DNA from: Rhodoflexus caldus
GTDB taxonomy: Bacteria > Bacteroidota > Bacteroidia > Cytophagales > Thermoflexibacteraceae
Direction of reading: 5' to 3'
Length of the DNA stretch: 64,000 nt
NCBI RefSeq assembly: GCF_021206925.1
Contig: NZ_JAJPRF010000005.1
Coordinates: 124,001 to 188,000, forward strand
Shown: piece by piece, positions 13,729 through 41,902 of the stretch
How the letters are laid out: the number at the start of each line of letters is the position of its first letter
Position numbering within the stretch: position 1 is the stretch's first letter
Notes under the pieces: model-generated
Told to the model about the DNA's origin: nothing
Seen by the model: the letters and a program-made list of their open reading frames with translations, nothing else
Databases searched by the model: none
Translations under genes and position numbers: made by a program

Positions 13729-15075
13729 ATGAACAAGAAACCAGCGAAGCCCGGAAAGTCAGGCTTCAAGCAGGACAAAGGTCGTGCGCAAAGCGGTAAG
13801 AAGCCTTTCCGAAATGCATCATCGGGCGATAAAAACAAAGGCACTTTCAATGCGAAGCCATCTCTTCGCAAACAATTTGAAAGCAACAACAGCGGCGGCA
13901 ACTTCCGCAGAGAAGGCGGCAACAGCGAGCGCCCTGTATTCCGCAAACGCTTTGACAACGACAGCAACAACGGCGGCGGTAACTTCCGCAGAGAAGGCGG
14001 CAACAGCGAGCGCCCTGTATTCCGCAAACGCTTTGACAACGACAGCAACAACGGCGGCGGTAACTTCCGCAGAGAAGGCGGCAACAGCGAGCGCCCCGCA
14101 TTCCGCAAACGCTTTGACAACGACAGCAACAACGGCGGCGGTAACTTCCGCAGAGAAGGCGGCAACCAAAACAAGGGTGGTTACTACTGGTGGAAAGATA
14201 TTCCCGAGGGCTACGAGCGCAACTCAAAAAGCACCTCACCGCGCCGCAAAACCCAAAAAAACCCGCGTACACCCGACTACGACATGTCTAAAATCAAGGG
14301 CATAGGAGAGTCCAAAGGCATCAAATTAAATCCGGGTGAAGGTATTCGCCTGAACCGATTCATTGCCAATGCCGGTATTTCTTCACGCAGAGAGGCCGAC
14401 AAGATTATTGAAAGCGGGCGAGTGTCGGTCAATGGCAAAGTCATTACCGAAATGGGGTATCGCGTAAAGCCTTCCGACCGTGTAGAATTGGACGGCGAAA
14501 TACTGAAACGCGAGCGCTTGGTCTATGTACTGTTGAATAAACCCAAAGACTACATCACAACAACAGATGACCCTCAGGAGCGCAAAACCGTTATGGAATT
14601 GGTAGAAGATGCCTGTGAGGAGCGCATCTATCCGGTAGGGCGTTTAGACCGCAATACAACCGGCTTGCTATTGCTGACTAACGATGGCGCACTGGCTGAA
14701 AAATTGTCGCATCCATCTAATCAGGTAAAGAAAAACTACCAGTTGGAGCTAAATAAGCCATTGGAAGAAAGCCATTTTGACCAAATCATGAATGGGATTG
14801 AGTTAGAAGACGGCTTTATCAAACCGGATAAACTGTCCTACATGACCGACGACCGCATGATTCTTTCCATTGACATTCACAGCGGCAAAAACCGCATCGT
14901 AAGACGCATTTTTGAACATTTCGGGTATGAAGTTGTGCGTTTGGATAGAGCAACCTACGCAGGACTAACCAAAAAAGGACTGCCGCGCGGCCAATGGCGT
15001 TATTTGACTCAACAGGAAGTCATTCGTCTGAAATTTTTTACAGGCAAGAGCAAGAAAACAACTTCGGAAGACTAA
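13729..15075 (+). CDS. rluB: 23S rRNA pseudouridine synthase, RluB/RsuA family, with repeat-rich basic N-terminus
   Basis: Encodes 448 residues. Residues ~1-185 are a disordered, Arg/Asn/Gly-rich extension (NKKPAKPGKSGFKQDKG...) that contains three near-identical 27-residue repeats and part of a fourth. Then come an S4 RNA-binding domain (IRLNRFIANAGISSRREADK, GRVSVNGKVI) and the catalytic domain: YVLLNKPKDYITTTDDPQER, YPVGRLDRNTTGLLLLTNDG with the catalytic Asp in GRLDR, KNYQLELN, and SIDIHSGKNRIVRRIFEHFGYEV. It converts a uridine in 23S rRNA to pseudouridine; the exact site is inferred from the RluB/RsuA family. The N-terminal extension resembles those found in many Bacteroidota RluB proteins but its repeats are unusually identical at DNA level. 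An in-frame TTG at 13711 is less likely as start. Confidence 0.94.
   Translation: MNKKPAKPGKSGFKQDKGRAQSGKKPFRNASSGDKNKGTFNAKPSLRKQFESNNSGGNFRREGGNSERPVFRKRFDNDSNNGGGNFRREGGNSERPVFRKRFDNDSNNGGGNFRREGGNSERPAFRKRFDNDSNNGGGNFRREGGNQNKGGYYWWKDIPEGYERNSKSTSPRRKTQKNPRTPDYDMSKIKGIGESKGIKLNPGEGIRLNRFIANAGISSRREADKIIESGRVSVNGKVITEMGYRVKPSDRVELDGEILKRERLVYVLLNKPKDYITTTDDPQERKTVMELVEDACEERIYPVGRLDRNTTGLLLLTNDGALAEKLSHPSNQVKKNYQLELNKPLEESHFDQIMNGIELEDGFIKPDKLSYMTDDRMILSIDIHSGKNRIVRRIFEHFGYEVVRLDRATYAGLTKKGLPRGQWRYLTQQEVIRLKFFTGKSKKTTSED
13900..14167 (+). repeat. 81-bp coding tandem repeat (3.3 copies)
   Basis: Unit starts at 13900, 13981, 14062 and 14143; the last copy is partial. Each unit encodes 27 residues beginning NFRREGGNSERP and ending NDSNNGGG. 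The copies differ by very few bases, for example Val to Ala in the third, which suggests recent expansion or gene conversion. Confidence 0.97.
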
Positions 15076-31040: not shown

Positions 31041-31247
31041 AGCAGTCGGCTAAGTAAGTGAACAGTTTAAAATGACCTTTCAAATTTACCACAAAGCCCG
31101 CTGAGTATTACGCCAATAGCACCGAGTGTTTTTATGATGAATCTGTTCTTTGTGTACACTGCAATTAAAACTTTGCGCACTCCGCGGTAAAAAAAACGCG
31201 TTAATCTGCTCACCTGCTTAAATGAGGGTTTTGCACATAACAACCCA

Positions 31248-31664
31248 TCAGAGCACCACCAGTTTCACATCTATGTTGCCGCGGGTAGCTTTGGAATACG
31301 GACAGGTTGCATGGGCTTTATCTACAATTTCCTCGGCTTCTGCTTTACTCAAATGAGGCAAGGAAACATGAATCTCAGCCCCTAAGCCAAAGCCTCCTTC
31401 AATCTCATTACCAATGTGGACTTTAACGGTAACAGTAGCGTCTGCCATGTTTTTACCCTTGCCGGCAGCTTGCAAAGCACCGCCAAAGCAAGCAGCATAA
31501 GCGGCGGCAAATAATTGCTCGGGGTTGGTATAATTTCCTTTGGGGCCGCCCAAAGCTACGGGTTGGCGTACTTCAAGGTCTAAAACGCCGTCGTCGGATT
31601 TTACGTTTCCGGTGCGTGCACCTACGTTGGTTACCGATGCTGTGTAGTGTATTTTGTTGAGCAT
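31248..31664 (-). CDS. ohr: Organic hydroperoxide resistance protein (Ohr/OsmC)
   Basis: Encodes 138 residues. Ohr is a dimeric thiol peroxidase that reduces organic hydroperoxides. Both redox cysteines are visible: AAYAACFGGALQAA and ATCPYSKATRGNIDVKL. The Arg of the active site lies in TASVTNVGARTGNV and the Glu in TNPEQLFAAAYA. Start LNKIHYTASV is typical. No MarR-type regulator (OhrR) is adjacent. A ~207-bp gap separates it from the convergent yggS gene; it contains AT-rich, low-information sequence. Confidence 0.96.
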   Translation of the reverse strand: MLNKIHYTASVTNVGARTGNVKSDDGVLDLEVRQPVALGGPKGNYTNPEQLFAAAYAACFGGALQAAGKGKNMADATVTVKVHIGNEIEGGFGLGAEIHVSLPHLSKAEAEEIVDKAHATCPYSKATRGNIDVKLVVL

Positions 31665-31715
31665 ATTTGTTGCGGTTGAGCTTATCGTAAATGTAACAAT
31701 TATCTCTCAATTTCA

Positions 31716-32525
31716 CTACGCTTCGGGCACCGGAGGAATACCTGTTCCTTCCGGCACTTGTTCTATCAGTCGCGCGATTTCTTCTCTGATTTGCTCAACG
31801 GTATAACTGTCATCAAATACGATGGGCGGCTTAAACCGAACGGAAAGGGTTGTGCCACGTTTTTTGAGCTTCAATCCCTTTTTATCAAATGCCCGACGGA
31901 ATCCGTTCAGCACTACCGGTACTACTATGGGTTTAAAGTCTTTGATAATGTGTGCCGTTCCTTTGCGCACAGGTGCATAGGGTTTTGTAGTGCCCTGCGG
32001 GAAGTTAATTACCCAGCCGTATTCCAATGCTTTTTTGATTTTTTCGGGCGCTTGCCTATCCGGGGCACGCTGTATGTCTTCGCCTTTGCTGCGCCATGAG
32101 CGGCGAACGGTTACGGCTCCGGCATAGGTGAAAACCTTTGGCAAAAATCCGCTTTCAAGCATGGTTTCTTCGGCAGCCACGTAAAAACTTTTTACTCTTG
32201 GCAGAAAAAAGTATATAGGAAAGCGAATAGAATCTTTCATCCGCCATTTGACGCTGCAAAAAATGTGGTACAACGCAATCACATCGGCATAGTATGTCTG
32301 GTGATTGGATATGAAAAGGACGTTCTTGTCGGGCAAATCCATCAGATATTCCGTTCCTTCTATCTTCAATTTGTTGATAATGTTCATGCGTGCATACGTA
32401 CCTACTGCGAAAACGCTCAGCAGCGCACGTTTCAAAATCAGCCAGTTGCCGAAGGGGTCGCGCCGAAGAAACTTCAGCCGCGGCAACTTTACTTTTTTAG
32501 GATTCAGTATGCGAAGAGCCATCAC
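31716..32525 (-). CDS. 1-acylglycerol-3-phosphate O-acyltransferase (PlsC-like)
   Basis: Encodes 269 residues. The acyltransferase blocks are present but altered: motif I is VLFISNHQTYYADVIAL, with five residues between His and Asp (H-x5-D) rather than the usual H-x4-D; motif III is INFPQGTTKPYAPVRKGTAH, where most enzymes have FPEGTR. IVVPVVLNGF corresponds to motif IV. I recall the same SNHQTYxADV form in other Bacteroidota proteins annotated as PlsC, so it is a subfamily trait, not decay. It would acylate lysophosphatidate or a related lysolipid at the membrane. No TM is strongly predicted beyond a hydrophobic stretch ~32-45. Confidence 0.82.
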   Translation of the reverse strand: MMALRILNPKKVKLPRLKFLRRDPFGNWLILKRALLSVFAVGTYARMNIINKLKIEGTEYLMDLPDKNVLFISNHQTYYADVIALYHIFCSVKWRMKDSIRFPIYFFLPRVKSFYVAAEETMLESGFLPKVFTYAGAVTVRRSWRSKGEDIQRAPDRQAPEKIKKALEYGWVINFPQGTTKPYAPVRKGTAHIIKDFKPIVVPVVLNGFRRAFDKKGLKLKKRGTTLSVRFKPPIVFDDSYTVEQIREEIARLIEQVPEGTGIPPVPEA

Positions 32526-32622
32526 AAATGCAGTTTAATTTTGTTGCGTTAAGGTTATGCCGTCATGAAAGATTTAACCTAATCTTCATCTACGCATAAT
32601 TACAAAAAAAGCAGCTAATTCG

Positions 32623-33279
32623 CTATTCGCTGATAAAGGAAATGATGTCGGCAGGCATTTCATGTCCGCCTTCAAAATTAACTACCTGCGGACGCAAGCC
32701 AATACTTTCCAAAGCATGAAAATGTTTTTCGGCTTCACCTTCGGGAATCAGCTCATCGCGGTTGCCGTACACAAAAAACAATTCACGCGAGGGAATAGGT
32801 GTTTCGTGTACGTTTGACAGCACATCGGCGGGCATTTCTCCTGCCCACATAATCAGGCGATTATAGGGCACTTTGCTGTGTGCCAGCCAACGGCAAAGCG
32901 TGGCGCACCCTTGCGAAAAGCCCAACATGTACACCTTCGGTACATGTTGGAAATGCGGTTTGGCCGATTCCAGCGCATATACTGCCTGCAAATAGTGCAT
33001 ATTGTTGGCTATATCGTTCAGGCGGTCTTCACGGGTCATCCAAACTGCCCCTACCCTGCCCTCAAAGCCTTTCAGGTAGTGCTTGGAAAGCCCCTGCGGT
33101 GCTATGATGTAGTTGGTGGCAGAGTCTAAATGAGCAAATTTTCGGACAAAATAGGCGGCCAATTGCCCGTAGCCGTGCATAACCCACCAGATTTTCTCTG
33201 TCTGTGCCGAAAGTGTGCCCCACGTGTAGTAGCGGGCATTAAAATTGAAAACGGCATTGTGTTGTGCAATGTCTTCCAT
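32623..33279 (-). CDS. Alpha/beta-hydrolase esterase (phospholipase/carboxylesterase-like)
   Basis: Encodes 218 residues. Catalytic triad candidates: the nucleophile Ser in YMLGFSQGCATLCRW (G-x-S-x-G), Asp in FVYGNRDELIPEGEAEKHF, and His in VNFEGGHEMPADI. WWVMHGYGQLAAYFVRKF near the N-terminus forms the oxyanion hole region. No signal peptide. The start is 4 bp after the pgi stop, so the two are cotranscribed. Substrate unknown. Confidence 0.87.
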   Translation of the reverse strand: MEDIAQHNAVFNFNARYYTWGTLSAQTEKIWWVMHGYGQLAAYFVRKFAHLDSATNYIIAPQGLSKHYLKGFEGRVGAVWMTREDRLNDIANNMHYLQAVYALESAKPHFQHVPKVYMLGFSQGCATLCRWLAHSKVPYNRLIMWAGEMPADVLSNVHETPIPSRELFFVYGNRDELIPEGEAEKHFHALESIGLRPQVVNFEGGHEMPADIISFISE

Positions 33280-33283
33280 CGGC

Positions 33284-34633
33284 TTACAAACGCTCGCGCA
33301 GGGTTTTAGCCAACTCCTCGTAACCTGCTTTGCCTAACAAGGCAAACATATTGACCTTATAAGCCTCTACCCCGGGCTGGTCAAACGGATTGACACCCAG
33401 AATATAGCCGCTGATGGCACAGGCTTTTTCAAAGAAGTAGAACAACTGCCCGATATAGTACTCGCTGATGGTCGGAATTTCAATGACCAAATTAGGGACG
33501 TTGCCTTCTATGTGGGCAAGCAAGGTGCCTTTTTCAGCCATTTTATTAACGGTGTGCATGTCTTTCCCTGCCAAATAGTTGAGTTTATCCAAATCCTCGG
33601 CATCGGTCGGGATGATAACCTGACGGCGGGTTTTGGCAACGGAAATAACGGTTTCAAACAGGTTGCGCTCCCCGTCCTGAATCAGTTGCCCCATGGAGTG
33701 CAGGTCGGTTGTGAAGCCGACACCAACAGGCAATATTGCTTTCAGGTCTTTGCCTTCGCTTTCGCCGTAGAGTTGTTTCCACCACTCCACAAGGTATTGC
33801 AGGCGCGGGTGATAAGTTGCCAAAATTTCAATGTTTTTGCCGCGGCGATAGAGTGCATTGCGCACGGCCGCATACAGCGAAACGGGGTTTTGGTTCATAT
33901 CGCTGTATTTTTGGGAATGTAATTCCATGTCGCGTGCGCCGGCCATCAGTTGGCGGATGTCAAAACCTGCCACGGCAATCGGCAGCAGCCCTACGGGGGT
34001 AAGCACCGAAAAGCGCCCCCCTACATCGGGCGGGATGGAGAAGGTTTGGTAGCCTTCCTGTGTCGCCATTTTGCGCAGTGCCCCCGACTCAGGGTCAGTA
34101 ACGGCAATGATGCGCTCGCGTGCGCCTTCCTTGCCGTAGCGTTTTTCCAAATCCTGTTTCAGTAGGCGGAAGGCAATGGCAGGCTCGGTAGTTGTTCCCG
34201 ACTTAGAAATTACGGCTACTGCATAGCTTTTATCTGCCAAAATATCCATCAGGTCGGCGTGGTAGTCGGCGCAAATATTCTGCCCGGCAAAAATTACCAG
34301 CGGGGCTTTGCGCTGCTCCTTGCTCAATAACGGGCTGAAATGGTGTGAAAGGGCATCAATCACTGCTTTGGCACCCAGATAAGAACCGCCTATGCCTACT
34401 ACAACAAAAATATCGGCGATTTCCTGCATACGGCGGGCGGCAGCCTCTATTTCGCTAAGCAAATCCTCGCTTGTGCTGCTCGGCAGATTGACCCATCCCA
34501 AAAAATCGCTGCCTTTACCTGTTCGGTTGCGCAAGGCTTCGTGGTGTTGGTCTATTTCTGCCTGATAGCGGGAAATATCTTTATAGAGCAAAAACTCTAA
34601 GGTTTTGCTGATGTCAATTTTCAGTGGTTCCAT
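33284..34633 (-). CDS. pgi: Glucose-6-phosphate isomerase
   Basis: Encodes 449 residues, the short bacterial class. It interconverts glucose-6-phosphate and fructose-6-phosphate. Landmarks: VVVGIGGSYLGAKAVIDAL, VISKSGTTTEPAIAFRLL (phosphate-binding SGTT), IAVTDPESGALRKMATQEGY, PPDVGGRFSVLTPVGLLPIAVAG (PGI signature 1, GGRFS), LPVGVGFTTDLHSMGQLIQDG (catalytic His in the second signature region) and the C-terminal GVNPFDQPGVEAYKVN (Lys). The gene continues into an esterase gene 4 bp downstream. Confidence 0.98.
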   Translation of the reverse strand: MEPLKIDISKTLEFLLYKDISRYQAEIDQHHEALRNRTGKGSDFLGWVNLPSSTSEDLLSEIEAAARRMQEIADIFVVVGIGGSYLGAKAVIDALSHHFSPLLSKEQRKAPLVIFAGQNICADYHADLMDILADKSYAVAVISKSGTTTEPAIAFRLLKQDLEKRYGKEGARERIIAVTDPESGALRKMATQEGYQTFSIPPDVGGRFSVLTPVGLLPIAVAGFDIRQLMAGARDMELHSQKYSDMNQNPVSLYAAVRNALYRRGKNIEILATYHPRLQYLVEWWKQLYGESEGKDLKAILPVGVGFTTDLHSMGQLIQDGERNLFETVISVAKTRRQVIIPTDAEDLDKLNYLAGKDMHTVNKMAEKGTLLAHIEGNVPNLVIEIPTISEYYIGQLFYFFEKACAISGYILGVNPFDQPGVEAYKVNMFALLGKAGYEELAKTLRERL

Positions 34634-34695
34634 TTCTTTGCGTTCAGTGTGCGCGGCAAAGATAAAATTTTCGTCCTAACTAAATCGGACGCGCA

Positions 34696-35436
34696 TCAAT
34701 ACTGCACCTGAATTTCGCCTAAAAAGAAATTGCCGCGTACCTGTACAATACAAGGCGATTCGTTAGAAAGAGGCGCAGGTTTTCCCGTGAGCCTGTCTAA
34801 CCAACTGCGGCGTTTATCCTTCACCTGAAACTCGCTCAACACAAGTTGAACAGCCCTTTGGATGGTGGGGACAGGCGGTAATAATATTTTCACGGCACTC
34901 AGCCCGCCCGTAATGACAATATCTAAGTGTTTACCTGCTATTGCTTCGTTGCGAAGGTCTATTGTCGTTTCGCTGAAATAGCTTTCAATGTGTATTCTGA
35001 ATTGATTGCCAACGACTTGTGCAGTACGGAAATCAATTTTCTGCGTACCGAAAAGGGCGGTGCATTTCACGGGGCGCTCGTCCAGCACCGCTATTTCCTG
35101 CTTGTCATTGTTGAAAATGGTTTGCAGCATGCCGTTAGGCATCTGTGAGGAATTGGCAGGATAATCATAGGGCGTTTCCTGCACAAACTGCGGTTGCTGC
35201 TGTGCGGGCGGAAAAATTTTATGCCGAATAGCCTTCGGAAAATCGGAAAGCACAGGCTCTAAATCCTCAATACATTCGGCTTTCATGGCCTCCTGTAAAC
35301 GCCTTTCGTATTCTCGCTCATCCAGATTTTGTTCGGCAAAGGCAGTTTGCAGTGCCTGAATGACTTCTTCCATTTTTTTGGGAAGCCCGTAAATGGTTTT
35401 AGTGGCTGTCGGCGTGTGTGAAGCAGGTCGGCTCAT
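34696..35436 (-). CDS. DUF1707/LiaF-like cytoplasmic protein
   Basis: Encodes 246 residues from ATG 35436. The N-terminal ~80 residues look like the DUF1707/SHOCT-type helical hairpin (LDEREYERRLQEAMKAECIEDLEPVLSDF). The C-terminal half (KCTALFGTQKIDFRTAQV, ESYFSETTIDLRNEAI, LDIVITGGLSAVKILLPP, FFLGEIQVQY) has the short repeated strands of the LiaF/YvqF C-terminal beta-helix, in which ~12-residue turns stack. No TM, unlike LiaF. Possibly a sensor of envelope stress; this is family inference and weak. It is the first gene of a minus-strand group with pgi, but a 62-bp gap separates them. Confidence 0.7.
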   Translation of the reverse strand: MSRPASHTPTATKTIYGLPKKMEEVIQALQTAFAEQNLDEREYERRLQEAMKAECIEDLEPVLSDFPKAIRHKIFPPAQQQPQFVQETPYDYPANSSQMPNGMLQTIFNNDKQEIAVLDERPVKCTALFGTQKIDFRTAQVVGNQFRIHIESYFSETTIDLRNEAIAGKHLDIVITGGLSAVKILLPPVPTIQRAVQLVLSEFQVKDKRRSWLDRLTGKPAPLSNESPCIVQVRGNFFLGEIQVQY

Positions 35437-35506
35437 TTGACATGATGGTAACGGATTAAACAATCATACGCCAAAGCTGCCTTTTGGGTTTTGCTGCGCA
35501 AGATGC

Positions 35507-35540
35507 AAAAAAAGTAAGGGCGAATTTTTCCGCCCTTACT
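35507..35540 (-). terminator. Hairpin with T-run on the minus strand
   Basis: Arms AGTAAGGGCG (35513-35522) and CGCCCTTACT (35531-35540), perfect 10 bp, loop 8 nt; on the minus strand followed by a T-run. It sits about 75 bp upstream of the minus-strand gene starting at 35436, so it could block incoming antisense transcription or act as an attenuator for that gene. Confidence 0.6.
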
Positions 35541-35562
35541 ATCTGTACCAAGCAAGAACGAC

Positions 35563-35661
35563 ATACAAAAGCGCAAGAGGTTTGCAAAATGCTCGTGTAA
35601 ATTACTGAAAAACAAGCATTTAAACCTGACTTTTTTTAGACCTGTCAGGGTTATGTATAAC
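35563..35661. repeat. ~100-bp dispersed repeat, copy B
   Basis: Begins ATACAAAAGCG and ends GTATAAC, as does copy C at 41455-41557; the two agree along the length with scattered substitutions (shared: GGTTTGCAAAA, GTAA-TTA-TGAAAAACAA, TTAAACCTGAC). It includes an inner hairpin AAATGCT...AGCATTT and the AAACCTGAC palindrome (35622-35652) near the right end. Confidence 0.8.
35622..35652. repeat. Dispersed palindrome, copy 2
   Basis: AAACCTGAC, T-run, then CTGTCAGGGTT: imperfect arms. It forms the right end of repeat copy B. Confidence 0.7.
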
Positions 35662-35829
35662 AGCATTGCCCGATAACAATACAGATTTTACATAGCACTA
35701 ACATTTTCCCACAAAAATGTTAGTGCTGCTTTTTAATCTCCGTCAGCATTTTACAACAACTGAAAGAGTGTTTTAGAAAAAAATTGCAGCAAAAGCGGAA
35801 CGTTTTGTCCTGCGGCGGTATTAAACCAT

Positions 35830-36948
35830 ATGAGAACGGAAAAAAACGCATCTTATTTCAATCAGGAAATCGCACAGGCGATTATTGAACAGATTCGCAG
35901 CACACGGTACAGCATTCGGGCGGCTGTTGCATGGATAACCGACCAGCAATTGGTTGCCGCACTATGTGCAAAAGCAGCGGAAGGAGTTGCCGTAGAAGTC
36001 ATTCTTGCCAACGACCGGGAAAAAAATCAGTACGCTGCCGTTTCGCTCAAAAGCCTGATGCAACAAGGTGCAGAGGTGCACATGGTTGGAACGGATTATG
36101 AGGGTGGCAGATTGATGCACCACAAGTTTTGCGTGATAGACCGCCGCAAAGTGCTGACAGGTTCTTACAATTGGACAAACGGGGCACGCAGCAGTTTCAT
36201 GGAAAATCTGGTCGTTATCAACGACGCAGATACGGCAATTGCCTACGAGCAGGAGTTTCTGCGTATCAAAAAGGGCGCAACGGAAAGCTATGCCGCCACT
36301 GACAGACCTTTTGCATGGCTGTACAGCGCTACACCACAAGTTGGGCAAGGGCAGGAAGTTAAAGTAGAGTGGTTGGTAAAAAATGCCGCCCAAGTGCGTT
36401 TGAACGGCAAGGCGGTAAATCCTGAAGATAGCTGCACATTCACCGCCGAATACCGTCGGGAGTTTGTGCTGGAAGCCGTCGGTAACGGTTACACGGTGCG
36501 CAAAACCTTGTCCGTAGAGTTGTTGCCGCCGCCATCGGTCAGCTTTCAGATTGATAAGCAGGCTATTCTGCAAGGCGAGGTTGTGCGCCTCAAATGGGAA
36601 ACCACAGGTGCGGAAAAGGTATGGCTAACGGGCGAATTAGGGCAGGTAATCGCCCTCAATAGCCACGGCGAGATGGAACTTTCCCCTGTCCACGAAACAC
36701 AGTTCACCCTGACAGCCGTCAACAAGGGCGGACAAACGCAAAGCAACCGCATGGTGCGGGTTTTTAAGCGCGTGGAAATCAGCCATATTCAAGTACCGAT
36801 GCCGCAGGTGCATATTCGCACTGATGTGGGATACGATGTCATTCCGCTGCCTTCGCGCTTCAGCCTTGGTGCCAAAGAATTAGCACACATGTGGCGCGTG
36901 CCTTCCATTCGCCGCCTGTCTGCCATGCTCAAATCATTGACAAAATAA
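35830..36948 (+). CDS. Single-HKD phospholipase-D-like nuclease with two Ig-like C-terminal modules
   Basis: Encodes 372 residues. Residues ~1-150 are a PLD domain with one HKD motif: RLMHHKFCVIDRRKVLTGSYNW, with His97, Lys99 and Asp104 in H-x-K-x4-D spacing, then NGARSSFMENLVVINDADTA. One motif per chain implies a dimer, as in Nuc/Zucchini-type nucleases. AAVAWITDQQLVAAL and EGVAVEVILANDREKN are the usual flanking blocks. Residues ~160-235 and ~235-315 are two similar beta modules (GQGQEVKVEWLVKNAAQVRLNG and ILQGEVVRLKWETTGAEKVWLTG), Ig-like. No signal peptide, so cytoplasmic. It could cut DNA or RNA, or act on lipid. It heads a plus-strand run with a DUF4407 membrane protein 35 bp downstream. 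Confidence 0.88.
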   Translation: MRTEKNASYFNQEIAQAIIEQIRSTRYSIRAAVAWITDQQLVAALCAKAAEGVAVEVILANDREKNQYAAVSLKSLMQQGAEVHMVGTDYEGGRLMHHKFCVIDRRKVLTGSYNWTNGARSSFMENLVVINDADTAIAYEQEFLRIKKGATESYAATDRPFAWLYSATPQVGQGQEVKVEWLVKNAAQVRLNGKAVNPEDSCTFTAEYRREFVLEAVGNGYTVRKTLSVELLPPPSVSFQIDKQAILQGEVVRLKWETTGAEKVWLTGELGQVIALNSHGEMELSPVHETQFTLTAVNKGGQTQSNRMVRVFKRVEISHIQVPMPQVHIRTDVGYDVIPLPSRFSLGAKELAHMWRVPSIRRLSAMLKSLTK

Positions 36949-36983
36949 TCAGAACATAACCCAAATCTAATATCCCCAAAGCC

Positions 36984-38141
36984 ATGAAAAAGTTTCTTTT
37001 ATTTGCCTCAGGTGCTAACCTTGAAATATTAAACCGTCCCGAATGCCGCAGCGATGAAGCGCGTTTTGTAGGTATTGGCGGTGCGGTAGTAGCCACTGCC
37101 TTCTTAGGTTGGCTATCGTCTGCCTATGCGCTGTACAGCATTTTTGAGTCTTACCCCATAGCCATTGCCGTAGGATTTGTGTGGGGTTGTGTGGTTTTCA
37201 ACTTAGACCGCTTTATTGTTTCGGTCATGCGCAAGCGGACGTTTCGTCCTGCCAATGACAGCAGCGCGGCATTAGTTCGGATAGTGCTTGCACTTTTTTT
37301 GGGTTATGTGATTTCTTATCCGTTGAAACTCAAAGTGTTTGAGTCGGAAGTGGCTGCCGAAATGCAGGTAATGGCACAGGAGAAACAGGAAGGCTTCAAA
37401 GGTGCCATCACGGCAAAATACAGAGAGGAACTCAACAGACTGCAAGCCGAAAACGAAAAACAACAGGCTGAAATTGAGCAAGCCGAAGCCAACTACAAAG
37501 AACTGACCCGTATTTATCTGGCAGAAGCCGACGGCAGCGGGGGAACGGGGCGCTACGGTTGCGGACCGGTCTGCCGCGCCAAAAGAGCTGCCGCCGATGC
37601 GGCAGGTGCAGCGTTGCAAAAACTGCGTGCCCAAAATGACCCGAACATTGCTCGGAATCGCGCCCGTATCAATGAAATTATGGCACAGATAGAAAGAGAG
37701 GCAGAAACTTGGGGCAACGGCAACGGCATGGGATACAACGGACTGCTGGCACGCATAGAGGCAATGGAACGTCTTAAACAAAAGGAATCGGCTATCTGGT
37801 GGGCTTCGTGGCTGCTCGTAGCTCTGCTGATGACCATTGAAATCGCCCCCATTCTGATTAAAATGTTTTCGGCAGCCTGTTCTTACGATTTCCTGCTGGA
37901 AATGCACGAAAATCGCCTGTACGACCGTGTTAAATTAGCTATTGACCGTATGTACAACAACTGCCAACGTGAATACCAAATTTTGGTAACAGCCAATCAG
38001 AATATGGTAGAAACCGAACGTAAAGCAAATGAACAATTGAGCAGGATGATTGCGCAAACACAGTTGGAACTTGCACAGGAGCAGTTGCAGGAGTTTAAGC
38101 AAAGCGCTGCTGCTAAGATGATTAGTAACGTAAGGACGTAA
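36984..38141 (+). CDS. DUF4407 family membrane protein
   Basis: Encodes 385 residues. Helices at ~29-50 (VGIGGAVVATAFLGWLSSAYAL), ~58-78 (YPIAIAVGFVWGCVVFNLD), ~95-112 (LVRIVLALFLGYVISYPL) and ~272-293 (WWASWLLVALLMTIEIAPILI) match DUF4407, with the signature VFNLDRFIVSVMRK. Between TM3 and TM4 lies a long coiled coil (AKYREELNRLQAENEKQQAEIEQ ...) and a Gly/Cys patch (GGTGRYGCGPVCRAKRAAAD). A C-terminal coiled coil (~310-380) follows TM4. Function unknown for the family. It starts 35 bp after the PLD gene and could be its membrane partner. Confidence 0.88.
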   Translation: MKKFLLFASGANLEILNRPECRSDEARFVGIGGAVVATAFLGWLSSAYALYSIFESYPIAIAVGFVWGCVVFNLDRFIVSVMRKRTFRPANDSSAALVRIVLALFLGYVISYPLKLKVFESEVAAEMQVMAQEKQEGFKGAITAKYREELNRLQAENEKQQAEIEQAEANYKELTRIYLAEADGSGGTGRYGCGPVCRAKRAAADAAGAALQKLRAQNDPNIARNRARINEIMAQIEREAETWGNGNGMGYNGLLARIEAMERLKQKESAIWWASWLLVALLMTIEIAPILIKMFSAACSYDFLLEMHENRLYDRVKLAIDRMYNNCQREYQILVTANQNMVETERKANEQLSRMIAQTQLELAQEQLQEFKQSAAAKMISNVRT

Positions 38142-38277
38142 TTTTTTTCAATCAAACAGGGAACGTTTGCCGAACGGCGGTATTAAACCACAGGACACCA
38201 ACGCCGAAAGTCCCTCAAAACAGGCAGCGGAAGCCGAAAAGCTGATAGAGTAGGCAGTTTTACAAAAGCCAATCAAA

Positions 38278-38787
38278 ATGTATCAAACACTGAAAATCAA
38301 GTTTTTAATTATAGTCTTGCTATTTGCCGTACAGTCGGTTGCAACCGCGCAGCAAAGTATTACAGTAGTCAAATTGAGTAACGGCGGCAGATATTTGGAA
38401 ACGAAAAAAGGATGGAGCATTACAGAGGCGTATTATGTCGGACCTTCGGGCACAAATGTACTGATACAAAGCATCAAAAAAGCTATTGAGTGGCATGATT
38501 TGAATCGTTCGCACCGGATGTCGTTTACCAAAGAAGTGAACCGTTTCAAAGTGCAAGATAAGTTCTCTTATGAGTTTCACGGGTATATAAGTCAGTTTGC
38601 CAATACGGCAAAGGTTATTTTTAAAGGTTATGCCGACGGCAGCAGCGATTGTATGATTGTGATTGACCAACACGGACATGAAGAAAATTTTATTACAATG
38701 TCCGGACGCAGCAATATGGAAGATTTTCTTAACATCCTGCAAGGCAAATCCGCCCGCCCCGAGATTGACAATATTTTCAGAAATTAG
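38278..38787 (+). CDS. Small secreted protein of unknown function
   Basis: Encodes 169 residues. Signal peptide MYQTLKIKFLIIVLLFAVQSVATAQQ (~25). The mature part is mixed alpha/beta (SITVVKLSNGGRYLETKKGWSITEAYYVGPSG, YEFHGYISQFANTAKVIFKGYAD, DCMIVIDQHGHEENFITMSG). No recognisable family. Lies 21 bp upstream of the caspase-like gene and so is probably cotranscribed with it. A 136-bp stretch before it contains a coding-like remnant (see findings). Confidence 0.7.
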   Translation: MYQTLKIKFLIIVLLFAVQSVATAQQSITVVKLSNGGRYLETKKGWSITEAYYVGPSGTNVLIQSIKKAIEWHDLNRSHRMSFTKEVNRFKVQDKFSYEFHGYISQFANTAKVIFKGYADGSSDCMIVIDQHGHEENFITMSGRSNMEDFLNILQGKSARPEIDNIFRN

Positions 38788-38808
38788 CGTTTAGAATGTA
38801 ACCTGCTC

Positions 38809-41019
38809 ATGATGACGGTTCGTATCCTTTGCCTGCTTGCCCTTTTCGGGATTGTTTTTGTCGGCGCGGCGCAAAAACCTCGCCGCCATGCGCTCATCAT
38901 CGGCATTGACAAGTACAGACCCGAAGACAAGCAATTAGCCGCAAGCGGGCGGGGCTTCGGCGATTTGGACGGGGCGGTAAACGATGCCTTAGCGTTTCAG
39001 ATGTTGCTCAAAGCCCGCTACGGTTTCCGCACCGCCGATATGCAAATCTTGCTCAACGGCGAGGCAACCGCCGAACGCATCCTCAAAGAGTTGCAGGCAG
39101 TTTTGCAGCGCGCCAAAGCGGGCGACCAAGTTATCATTTACTATGCGGGGCACGGTTCGCAGGTGAGCAATCCGCTTTCGCCCGAGCCTGACAAAATGGA
39201 CGAAACCATTGTGCCTGCCGATGCTTGGCGCGGCAACTTAGACGGCAAACTCTACGACATCCGCGACAAGGAAATTGCCCGCATGGTGTATCCCGCCGCA
39301 CAAGCGGGCGTACAGGTTACCGTTATTTTTGACAGTTGCCACAGCGGTTCGGTAACACGCGCCGCAGGGGGCAGCGTGGGCAAAATTCGCAAAGCAGCAC
39401 CTTCGGGCGTGGTGTTGGAAGATGCCTCAGAGTCGCCGCCATTGGAAGCTGCGGGCGTGTTGGTACTCACCGCCGCACAGGATTTTCAGCCTGCACAAGA
39501 GTACTACGATGCCAAAGGCAACCCGCACGGGGCATTCACTTACGCGCTCATGCAAGCCATGCGCGAATCGGGCAGGCGCGAATCGGTACGGGAACTTTTC
39601 CTGCGCACCCGTGCCCGCCTGAAAGCCCTTGGTCTGAAACAAGAACCCGTGCTGCTGGGCAACGAACAGCGCCGCCGACAGCCGCTCATCGCCCCGCAGG
39701 CGACCGAAGGTACGGATGAAGAATCGCCGATTCTGGTAACCGTTGCCGCCAAAACCGATAAGGGCATTGTCATTGAGGGCGGTCCGGTGCTGGGTATTTA
39801 CGAAAACACATTGCTCAAACCCTTTGGCAAACAGCCGTTGAGCCTGTCGGCAGAGCCGCGTTTGCGCGTCAAACAGTTGTTGGGGGGCAATCGCGCGCTT
39901 TGCGAGTTGGAACAAGGCGATGCGCGCCGCATTCAAATCGGCGATGCGTGGGAGGCGGTCAGCCGCACAGTGCCCGAGCGCAGCCGTTTGCGCCTCTGCT
40001 TACCCCTGATTGCCCGAGATGCCGAGCAATTGGCAAAAGAGGCAGCCGACTTTTCCCGACGGGCTGCCCTGTACAACATCCAATTTTCGGAAAGCAGCCA
40101 AGCGCCTTTTGCCGTGCTGTATCGCAACCAAACGTGGCAGTTGCAGGATGCGGCGGGCAACGTGCTTGCGCAAGAGGCAGCCTTAGACCGCCTTACTTTG
40201 GAAGGGGCAGCAGGCAGTGCTGTTTATTGGCTCTTGCCCCTGCCGCAAACCGCAGCGGAAAAGCTGCAAAAAGATGTCAATCAACACGTCATACGATTTG
40301 CCGATGAGCAAACGGCTGACTATGTGTTGGGGGGATTCTATCACAACGGCGAACTTCGCTACGGTTGGTTGCGCCAAGCCGCAGGGGCAGACACAAGCCC
40401 CATGCCGAAGACCTCCGCCCTGATAGGATTGCAAGAAGCCAATTTCAACAAAACGCTGGGCGATTATTTGGTTCAGTTGGCGCGCATCAAAAACCTGTTG
40501 ACCATAGAAAACCCGCCGGAAGATCATCCGTTCCCTTATCGGTTGGTATTGGTTAATGCCCAAACGGGGCAAATCCACCGAAGCGATACGTTGCGTACAG
40601 GGCAAACCTTTGGGCTGCGGCTGCAATTGGATACGGTTGCGGCTGCTTCGTGGAGCGGCAGGCGGTCGTGGGTGTATGTGTTTGTCTTGGACAGCGAAGG
40701 CAACACATCGCTGCTGTATCCGCGCAGCGGCAATGTGGAAAACTTTCTGCCTGCTGCGGACGAACACCCCGAAAGCATTGCTTTGGGTTCGGAGCGGCTG
40801 TTGCGCATCACGCCGCCCTTCGGTGCGGATACTTACATCACCCTGCTGACGCACGAACCGCTGCCCGACCCGTTTTTGCTACAACAAAAAGGCGTACAGA
40901 CACGCGCCGCCGAGCATCCGCTGTCAGATTTGCTGCTGGGCAGTTCCGAAACGCGGTCAGCATCTCTGACTGGCAGTTGGCAAATCCGGCGGCAGGTGTT
41001 TGTAAGTATGGGGCAGTAG
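38809..41019 (+). CDS. Exported caspase-family (C14) protease with C-terminal DUF4384-like region
   Basis: Encodes 736 residues. A signal peptide ends at VFVGAAQ (~22). The caspase p20-like domain starts RHALIIGIDKYRPED, with catalytic His115 in IIYYAGHGSQVS and Cys177 in VTVIFDSCHSGSVTR; the Asp of DLDGAVNDALAF follows the metacaspase pattern. GAFTYALMQAMRESG and PVLLGNEQRRRQPL close the domain (~285). Residues ~290-560 are an unassigned linker. The C-terminal ~180 residues (PYRLVLVNAQTGQIHRSD, SWVYVFVLDSEGNTSLLYPR, NFLPAADEHPESIALGSERLL, TYITLLTHEPLPDP) resemble the DUF4384 domain often fused to bacterial caspases. Being exported, it should act in the periplasm or outside. Two tandem ATG codons start it. 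Confidence 0.92.
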   Translation: MMTVRILCLLALFGIVFVGAAQKPRRHALIIGIDKYRPEDKQLAASGRGFGDLDGAVNDALAFQMLLKARYGFRTADMQILLNGEATAERILKELQAVLQRAKAGDQVIIYYAGHGSQVSNPLSPEPDKMDETIVPADAWRGNLDGKLYDIRDKEIARMVYPAAQAGVQVTVIFDSCHSGSVTRAAGGSVGKIRKAAPSGVVLEDASESPPLEAAGVLVLTAAQDFQPAQEYYDAKGNPHGAFTYALMQAMRESGRRESVRELFLRTRARLKALGLKQEPVLLGNEQRRRQPLIAPQATEGTDEESPILVTVAAKTDKGIVIEGGPVLGIYENTLLKPFGKQPLSLSAEPRLRVKQLLGGNRALCELEQGDARRIQIGDAWEAVSRTVPERSRLRLCLPLIARDAEQLAKEAADFSRRAALYNIQFSESSQAPFAVLYRNQTWQLQDAAGNVLAQEAALDRLTLEGAAGSAVYWLLPLPQTAAEKLQKDVNQHVIRFADEQTADYVLGGFYHNGELRYGWLRQAAGADTSPMPKTSALIGLQEANFNKTLGDYLVQLARIKNLLTIENPPEDHPFPYRLVLVNAQTGQIHRSDTLRTGQTFGLRLQLDTVAAASWSGRRSWVYVFVLDSEGNTSLLYPRSGNVENFLPAADEHPESIALGSERLLRITPPFGADTYITLLTHEPLPDPFLLQQKGVQTRAAEHPLSDLLLGSSETRSASLTGSWQIRRQVFVSMGQ

Positions 41020-41079
41020 TGTGTGTAAAATGAATTACGTCAGGGTTAAAGGACGCAGCGCACTGCATCCTCGATGTTT

Positions 41080-41280
41080 CTATCCCTTCCGCTGCCTTGC
41101 CTTGGCGATGGTCATTTTCAGGTAGCGTTCCGCATCGCGGCGGGCGGTGGCTTTTTCCGATTTGCGTTGCAGGACGGCAAGAATCTGCTCATCGGTTCTG
41201 CCCTGTTCAATCAGAAAACAAGCCAAAGCAAAGTCATATGTGCTGCGGTCGCGACTTTGCCGCTTGCCACCGTCAGTAAA
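41080..41280 (-). pseudogene. C-terminal fragment of a primase/replication-like protein
   Basis: In the minus frame: RQSRDRSTYDFALACFLIEQG, RTDEQILAVLQRKSEKATARRD, AERYLKMTIAKARQRKG, stop. The 'DFALACxLIxxG...EQIxxVL...YLxxTIxKA' pattern resembles the C-terminal helical tail of plasmid/phage primase-helicase proteins, from memory. It has no plausible start of its own and directly abuts the end of the DUF5615 remnant. A truncated remnant of a mobile element is the simplest reading. Confidence 0.45.
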
Positions 41281-41454
41281 TTTCCAATATACCCAATTCC
41301 TCATCTGCCATGAAAGCCGCAATGACTGCTTGTTTTTCTATCAGCATTCGGCAGAGGAAGGCTGTACTTTGATTGCCGGTGCGCAGCAGCAATACCTTAC
41401 CTTGGGCGGATAGCCGTATAGAACGACAAAGTCCTGAAAATCCGCATCATTGGT

Positions 41455-41557
41455 ATACAAAAGCGTAAGTGGTTTGCAAAAATGCTTTTTGTAAGTTATT
41501 GAAAAACAACTACTTAAACCTGACAGGTTTTGAAAACCTTTCAGGTTTGAGTATAAC
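41455..41557. repeat. ~100-bp dispersed repeat, copy C, inserted in a toxin gene
   Basis: ATACAAAAGCG...GTATAAC, 103 bp, homologous to copy B (35563-35661). Includes the palindrome AAACCTGACAGGTTT / AAACCTTTCAGGTTT (41516-41548). The host gene flanks are interrupted exactly at the ends, and the short sequence TATA occurs at both borders, perhaps from a target duplication. Confidence 0.8.
41516..41548. repeat. Dispersed palindrome, copy 3
   Basis: AAACCTGACAGGTTT pairs with AAACCTTTCAGGTTT across a 3-nt loop with one mismatch region. It forms the right end of repeat copy C, which shows that the palindrome is part of a larger mobile unit at least in copies B and C. Confidence 0.8.
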
Positions 41558-41768
41558 AATTGTGAATGCGCCTTTCTTTGCCCATTGCCAAATAGCCAAG
41601 TCTGCGGCACTGTTGCCTAATCCGATGCCGCTCACATGCTTCACCTCTGCATAATGCGCAACTGTCCTCTGGGCCAGAATGTTTTTCAAAGCCAAAGCTT
41701 GCCCGCTCCGGCTTGTTGGGAAAGGCATCAGGCAATAGTAAAAAGCGTATAAAGGCGTGTATAATTAT

Positions 41769-41809
41769 TTGAGGTTTGCTTGTAAATTACTGATTATCAA
41801 ATATTTAAT
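41769..41809. repeat. Decayed third relative of the dispersed repeat
   Basis: Shares GAGGTTTGC, TTGTAAATTACTGA and ATCAAATATTTAA with the left two-thirds of copy B in the same order, after a 9-nt deletion. It lacks the palindromic end. Lies 94 bp before the comEC stop. Confidence 0.5.
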
Positions 41810-41902
41810 TGTTAATTTTGATCAATTGAGTTACTCAATAAAATATTTCGTAATTTTGATAAAAAAATCAGTAAAACTACATCATACAGAAAAGTTGCGT
41901 GA

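What the first reader, a model, noticed from the sequence alone, without database searches (positions are those of the whole stretch)
35830..41019. Plus-strand block: PLD nuclease, DUF4407 membrane protein, small secreted protein, exported caspase
Seen: four genes on one strand, flanked left by a repeat-bearing intergenic region and right by a gene graveyard. A single-HKD PLD nuclease with two Ig-like modules is followed 35 bp on by a DUF4407 membrane protein, and a small secreted protein precedes a caspase by 21 bp. Known: HKD nucleases and caspases occur in bacterial defence and cell-death systems, and DUF4407 is functionally unassigned. Inferred: at least the PLD/DUF4407 pair may form a membrane-linked nuclease unit, and the caspase pair a separate exported protease unit. 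The caspase's signal peptide argues against a simple intracellular suicide switch. I do not know this combination as a described system.
Basis: partly seen in the sequence, partly recalled or inferred. Interest (0 to 1): 0.6.

Follow-up and report, generated by a model that had tools for sequence, protein, structure and literature searches.

The report
Membrane-paired PLD enzyme beside exported caspase
Two of the four genes, a phospholipase-D-type enzyme with two immunoglobulin-like modules and a membrane protein of unknown function (DUF4407), turn out to be a conserved pair in which the enzyme 'head' is exchanged in relatives for a dead enzyme or a protein kinase, whereas the neighbouring exported caspase is a separate unit that merely lies next door.

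Summary
The four plus-strand genes are real and correctly placed. They are not one system. (1) PLD-Ig-Ig and DUF4407 (35830-38141) are a genuine conserved pair. A profile of full-length PLD-Ig found only four carriers among 376 genomes of the order, and all four have DUF4407 directly downstream on the same strand; a fifth case lies in another order. More widely, many DUF4407 genes (not the solitary ones) follow an Ig-domain gene whose head varies: active PLD, HKD-less PLD (five times beside contractile-injection-system tape-measure and AAA+ genes), a protein kinase with vWA (and mostly PP2C-like) genes (TerY-P-like), or none. Partner type tracks the DUF4407 tree (9 changes against 35 in shuffles). 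I found no description of this module. (2) The exported caspase and the 169-aa secreted protein form a second unit with its own leader, an Rfam DUF805b RNA (38224-38256). Caspase and leader exist without PLD/DUF4407 in a congener; the 169-aa protein is rare and elsewhere not beside a caspase. (3) The block is bracketed by ~100-nt imperfect direct repeats and is absent from its place in the closest congener. Most likely mechanism (inferred): DUF4407 is an inner-membrane sensor/anchor that holds and controls the PLD hydrolase. The window copy lacks a C-terminal tail that its relatives share.

The parts
35830..36948 (+). PLD-Ig-Ig protein, 372 aa: single-HKD PLD domain (6-148), two Ig-like domains (161-231, 236-312), short low-confidence tail
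   Evidence: Pfam PLDc_2 E 3e-25; HHKFCVID at residue 97; AF2 model pLDDT 77; Foldseek best Nuc 1byr E 1e-10, TMt 0.85
36984..38141 (+). DUF4407 membrane protein, 385 aa: about four hydrophobic segments (26-47, 53-81, 92-119, 269-300), long helical hairpin 120-246 with a Gly-rich tip, helical C-terminal tail
   Evidence: PF14362 265.7 bits; hydropathy; AF2 pLDDT 84, all helical; no PDB fold match at E<=0.001
38224..38256 (+). DUF805b RNA (RF02914), part of a ~116-nt conserved leader 38150-38265 ahead of the 169-aa/caspase genes
   Evidence: 44.6 bits, gathering 35.6; 86% identical in congener G007 ahead of its caspase locus
38278..38787 (+). 169-aa protein with signal-like N terminus; no Pfam, NCBIfam or PADLOC family
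38809..41019 (+). Exported C14 caspase (orthocaspase type), 736 aa, HC dyad intact
   Evidence: PF00656 E 4e-29; YYAGHG/DSCHSG; metacaspase matches in PDB
35797..35828 (+). Copy of the 5' half of the caspase leader (GGAACGTTT..GGCGGTATTAAACCA), ending just before the PLD start codon; second copy 38160-38190
   Evidence: only two genome matches at <=1 mismatch to CGGCGGTATTAAACCA; 84% over 32 nt; diverged relatives before other genes
35563..35660 (+). Left ~100-nt direct repeat bracketing the block
   Evidence: 79% to 41455-41556
41455..41556 (+). Right ~100-nt direct repeat bracketing the block
35693..35728 (+). Terminator-like hairpin (15 pairs, then CTTTTT) upstream of the PLD gene
   Evidence: fold z -4.1

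Best explanation
The PLD-Ig protein and DUF4407 work as one membrane-associated two-gene module. Shown: the pair is conserved as neighbours, and the head domain of the Ig partner is exchangeable across relatives while the Ig modules and DUF4407 stay. Inferred: DUF4407 sits in the inner membrane by four helices; its ~60-residue helical hairpin projects into the periplasm and its helical C-terminal tail lies in the cytoplasm; the Ig modules of the cytoplasmic partner dock on DUF4407 and hold the head at the membrane. In this genome the head is an active single-HKD hydrolase of the Nuc/NucT/Zucchini type, expected to act as a homodimer on nucleic acid (possibly on phospholipid). A disturbance of the envelope sensed by DUF4407, such as DNA entry, would release or activate it. 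The caspase and the 169-aa protein are a separate exported unit under an RNA leader.
For: Full-length profile of active PLD-Ig finds exactly G000, G009, G031 and G360 among 376 genomes, all with DUF4407 immediately downstream on the same strand; a fifth, Saprospirales L019, overlaps it. Gaps run from 35 bp to overlaps. Of 76 DUF4407 genes placed on a tree, 38 have an Ig or Ig-like partner upstream: active PLD 5, HKD-less PLD 16, kinase 6, small Ig 11; partner types need 9 changes against 35 in shuffles. Kinase heads lie with vWA and mostly PP2C-like genes. HKD-less PLD heads lie beside CIS_TMP and AAA+ in five loci. Structure: PLD fold, four hydrophobic segments and hairpin in DUF4407.
Against: No interaction, activity or topology was measured, and no complex could be modelled. 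The window PLD protein lacks the ~60-aa C-terminal tail shared by the other four active forms, and its DUF4407 is a long unplaced branch, so this copy may be altered or decaying. Many DUF4407 genes are solitary, so DUF4407 has a role without a partner. Single-HKD enzymes may be phospholipases, so 'nuclease' is not settled. The partner classes 'small Ig' and 'HKD-less' were assigned partly by eye.
Confidence: 0.55

Rival explanations
1. The PLD/DUF4407 pair is specifically an anti-phage (abortive-infection or DNA-entry-blocking) system: a membrane-anchored nuclease that degrades incoming DNA.
For: Accessory distribution (4 of 376 genomes, absent in congeners); neighbours of two relatives are type I restriction-modification genes (L019) and a DNA methylase (L131), of a third a large helicase; TerY-P-like modules related to the kinase form are reported as defence (cited in PMC11090510).
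Against: No defence-system model matches as a unit: only generic PLD hits such as DrmC (37 bits, cut-off 133). Neighbour evidence rests on three loci.
Confidence: 0.3
2. The module is an envelope-physiology device: DUF4407 plus Ig partner is a structural or signalling scaffold at the membrane, and the HKD enzyme trims phospholipid (cardiolipin-hydrolase-like) rather than nucleic acid.
For: Best sequence matches in PDB include mitochondrial cardiolipin hydrolase; the head is dead in the largest paired clade, so a non-catalytic scaffold role exists; HKD-less pairs travel with a secreted protein and a GH18 hydrolase.
Against: The nucleases Nuc and NucT rank higher by fold.
Confidence: 0.25
3. All four genes form one composite system (PLD, membrane sensor, secreted protein, exported caspase).
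For: Same strand; both halves carry the same leader half-element before their first gene; both lie between the same ~100-nt repeats.
Against: In no other genome found are all four together; congener G007 has leader and caspase without PLD/DUF4407; the other four PLD/DUF4407 pairs have no caspase detected nearby.
Confidence: 0.07
4. The window copy of the pair is a decaying relic left between dispersed repeats.
For: Missing conserved C-terminal tail, long DUF4407 branch, adjacent gene fragments and repeats.
Against: Both ORFs are intact, catalytic HKD/GSxN residues are conserved, and GC is ordinary.
Confidence: 0.1

Closest known systems
Single-HKD PLD nucleases Nuc, NucT and MitoPLD/Zucchini
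   Same: Fold (Foldseek Nuc 1byr TMt 0.85) and HxKx4D...GSxN site
   Different: Two Ig-like modules fused C-terminally and a dedicated DUF4407 membrane partner
TerY-P triads (vWA + PP2C + Ser/Thr kinase; background in PMC11090510)
   Same: Relatives of this pair with a kinase head sit in vWA, mostly vWA-PP2C-like, loci, so the DUF4407/Ig part is shared
   Different: The window has no kinase, PP2C or vWA in the block; published TerY-P kinases are described with zinc-ribbon or OB-fold tails, not Ig plus DUF4407
Accessory genes of contractile injection systems in Cytophagales
   Same: HKD-less PLD-Ig + DUF4407 lies right after CIS_TMP and an AAA+ gene in five loci
   Different: Own genome has no CIS_TMP; head active here
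CisA, membrane adaptor of Streptomyces CIS (PMC12237407)
   Same: A membrane protein encoded with a cytoplasmic CIS, a possible parallel for the CIS-linked DUF4407
   Different: CisA is a single-pass protein with an extracytoplasmic substrate-binding-like domain; no relation shown
DISARM DrmC
   Same: PLD-family protein of a defence system; sub-threshold match
   Different: 37.1 bits against a cut-off of 133; no Ig/DUF4407
Prokaryotic orthocaspases (C14)
   Same: Intact HC dyad, p20 domain
   Different: Exported, with a long C-terminal region lacking a clear Pfam domain

Membership tests
DUF4407 (PF14362) | Score above gathering cut-off | tested here: met
   265.7 vs 31.3 bits
Single-HKD PLD hydrolases | One HxKx4D with GSxN downstream and PLD fold | tested here: met
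   HHKFCVIDRRKVLTGSYN; Foldseek 1byr
Single-HKD PLD hydrolases | Homodimeric active site and nuclease or lipase activity | not testable with these tools
   needs biochemistry
DISARM DrmC | NCBIfam equivalog cut-off | tested here: not met
   37.1 vs 133 bits
TerY-P triad | vWA, PP2C and kinase genes together | tested here: not met
   none among the four genes of the block; seen in kinase-type relatives (Pfam vWA + PP2C + kinase in L036; vWA with kinase in L039, L098, L100)
Contractile injection system accessory | Located in a genome with CIS_TMP | tested here: not met
   no CIS_TMP in G000
X-Ig + DUF4407 module (defined here) | Ig-bearing gene directly upstream, same strand | tested here: met
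X-Ig + DUF4407 module (defined here) | Conserved C-terminal tail of the Ig partner | tested here: not met
   window protein ends ~60 aa early
Orthocaspase (C14) | p20 domain with His/Cys dyad | tested here: met
   PF00656 E 4e-29; YYAGHG, DSCHSG
DUF4384 fusion of the caspase | Pfam cut-off | tested here: not met
   17.7 vs 27 bits
DUF805b RNA (RF02914) | Rfam gathering score | tested here: met
   44.6 vs 35.6 bits

The most novel reading that the evidence does not exclude
DUF4407 plus an Ig-module partner is a general, undescribed membrane platform of Bacteroidota on which different heads (nuclease/lipase, dead PLD, protein kinase) are mounted, giving a common envelope-sensing trigger to unrelated outputs, including contractile injection systems and TerY-P-type phosphosignalling.
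Probability: 0.4. Interest if true: 0.78.

Novelty: new variant of a known kind. Interest (0 to 1): 0.6.

Why it matters
DUF4407 is widespread (112 of 390 genomes sampled in the order and 121 of 395 in the phylum score above the family cut-off), also occurs in Lak megaphages, and has no assigned function. Finding that one branch of it is paired with interchangeable Ig-bearing heads gives a testable role (membrane anchor/sensor for a docked effector), links it to contractile injection systems and to TerY-P-like signalling, and offers small two-gene pairs in which docking can be tested directly.

Tried and rejected
Four-gene single system: rejected on synteny. 169-aa + caspase as a conserved pair: rejected (3 of 390 genomes). 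Membership in a catalogued defence system: PADLOC and NCBIfam give only generic hits. Relation of DUF4407 to Csx27 (E 0.002, 18 vs 65 bits): treated as membrane-helix noise. PDB fold relatives of DUF4407: none significant. Spread by viruses or plasmids: no viral-contig or plasmid match; phages only in the Lak group, solitary. Flanking element as an exact target-site duplication: considered because the two leader copies flank the pair, but the copies are only 84% alike and relatives occur before other genes, so a shared leader is more likely. Foreign base composition: none. My first genome search used the wrong Pfam accession (DUF4401) and is disregarded. One Pfam call failed on coordinates.

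Full report
Observation. Pfam gives PLDc_2, DUF4407 and Peptidase_C14; the 169-aa protein has no family. The PLD protein has a single intact HKD and no signal-like segment; the 169-aa protein and the caspase have hydrophobic N termini; the caspase HC motifs are intact. DUF4384 is below its cut-off.

Structure. The PLD-Ig model (12-row alignment, pLDDT 77) has a PLD domain at 6-148, two beta-sandwich modules at 161-231 and 236-312, and a low-confidence tail. Foldseek puts the PLD part closest to Nuc (1byr, E 1e-10, TMt 0.85), NucT and Zucchini. DUF4407 (pLDDT 84) is all helical with hydrophobic segments at 26-47, 53-81, 92-119 and 269-300, a helical hairpin between the last two with a conserved Gly-rich tip (184-194), and a helical tail; no solved fold matches at E<=0.001. 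That the hairpin is periplasmic and the tail cytoplasmic is inferred from the basic loop at 83-89 and four helices.

The pair is conserved. DUF4407 loci from GTDB genomes, from the window's order and from the phylum were read for the gene upstream. A profile of five active PLD-Ig proteins run over 376 genomes of the order gave four full-length matches (525-704 bits; next best 151 bits and only over the PLD domain): G000, G009 (the same contig as Thermoflexibacter ruber L032), G031 and G360. In all four a DUF4407 gene follows directly on the same strand. The fifth case, Saprospirales L019, overlaps its DUF4407 gene. This is far beyond chance for a gene present about once in a third of genomes.

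The head is exchangeable. Upstream of DUF4407 I found: active PLD-Ig (5 loci); a ~415-aa HKD-less PLD-like protein with two Ig modules (16 loci on the tree; alignment); protein kinase-Ig (L036, L039, L098, L100, L104, L152), with vWA genes at L036, L039, L098 and L100 and a Pfam PP2C at L036; the PP2C-like genes of L039 and L100 are judged from sequence only, since Pfam found no match there; and a small Ig-like protein (11 loci, several assigned by eye). HKD-less pairs lie next to CIS_TMP and an AAA+ ATPase in L029, L030/L082, L087, L090 and L095, usually followed by a secreted protein and a GH18 hydrolase. Solitary DUF4407 genes exist in large clades. On a tree of 76 DUF4407 proteins the five partner states need 9 changes against 35 in shuffles; HKD-less PLD pairs are one clade (98*), three of five active pairs are one clade (99*); the window row is a long branch of uncertain place, and near-copies inflate clustering. 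Ig modules also occur in proteins without a DUF4407 neighbour, so the Ig part alone does not define the module.

The caspase is a separate unit. Between DUF4407 and the 169-aa gene lies an Rfam DUF805b RNA (38224-38256). A ~116-nt leader including it is 86% identical in congener G007, where it precedes a secreted 219-aa protein, a further protein and a caspase 64% identical to the window's, with no PLD or DUF4407. The 169-aa protein has homologues in only two other genomes of 390, with no caspase near them. The 5' half of the leader also stands immediately before the PLD start codon and, in diverged form, before other genes of this genome and of a congener, so both units may share a regulatory leader; this is unproven.

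Genomic setting. The closest congener, G008, joins sequence matching the window at 31087 directly to that at 41824, so a 10.7-kb stretch including pgi and the four genes is not at that place there; PLD, DUF4407 and the caspase were not found elsewhere in G008. The four-gene block is bracketed by ~100-nt direct repeats, 79% identical. A strong terminator-like hairpin lies at 35693-35728.

Mechanism. Committed view: DUF4407 is the membrane anchor and sensor, the Ig modules dock, the PLD head is the output. Adjacency and head exchange are shown; docking, topology, trigger and substrate are inferred. Caveat: the window PLD protein lacks the ~60-residue C-terminal tail that the other four active forms share, so the Thermoflexibacter or L019 pair is the better test object.

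Comparison with the known. The three open-access papers that mention DUF4407 do so only in tables of genes or domains. TerY-P triads are described with zinc-ribbon or OB-fold kinase tails (PMC11090510), not with Ig modules and DUF4407. CisA of Streptomyces (PMC12237407) shows that a cytoplasmic CIS can need a membrane adaptor, which is a parallel for the CIS-linked pairs, not a relative.

Limits.

Noticed in passing
window 38224-38256: Rfam DUF805b RNA ahead of the 169-aa/caspase genes; a second above-threshold copy lies in the same genome ahead of another secreted-protein gene (L167 1549-1581), another in congener G007 (L162 1307-1339).
   Followed up: partly
L029, L082, L087, L090, L095: HKD-less PLD-Ig + DUF4407 directly follows CIS tape-measure and AAA+ genes and is mostly followed by a secreted protein and GH18: a possible membrane-anchoring part of these injection systems.
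   Followed up: partly
L036, L039, L098, L100, L152: Kinase-Ig + DUF4407 with vWA and PP2C-like genes in most: TerY-P-like loci with a membrane component.
   Followed up: partly
L080 7977-9236: Lak megaphages (TAG read as Q) encode a solitary DUF4407 protein.
   Followed up: partly
window 35563-35660 and 41455-41556: ~100-nt imperfect direct repeats bracket the four-gene block; a partial copy occurs elsewhere in the genome (L185 5125-5191).
   Followed up: partly
window 31087-41824: Stretch of 10.7 kb including pgi is not at this place in the closest congener (L159).
   Followed up: partly
window 41080-41322, minus strand: 80-aa ORF weakly like a RepB primase C-terminal domain (23.2 bits, cut-off 26.1), in the fragment-rich region right of the block.
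   Followed up: no
window 13879-14166: Near-identical tandem copies with an 81-bp period (96-98% alike).
   Followed up: no
L088, L091, L092, L094, L096, L142, L145: Small Ig-like gene followed by DUF4407 and, in most, a second related membrane protein.
   Followed up: no
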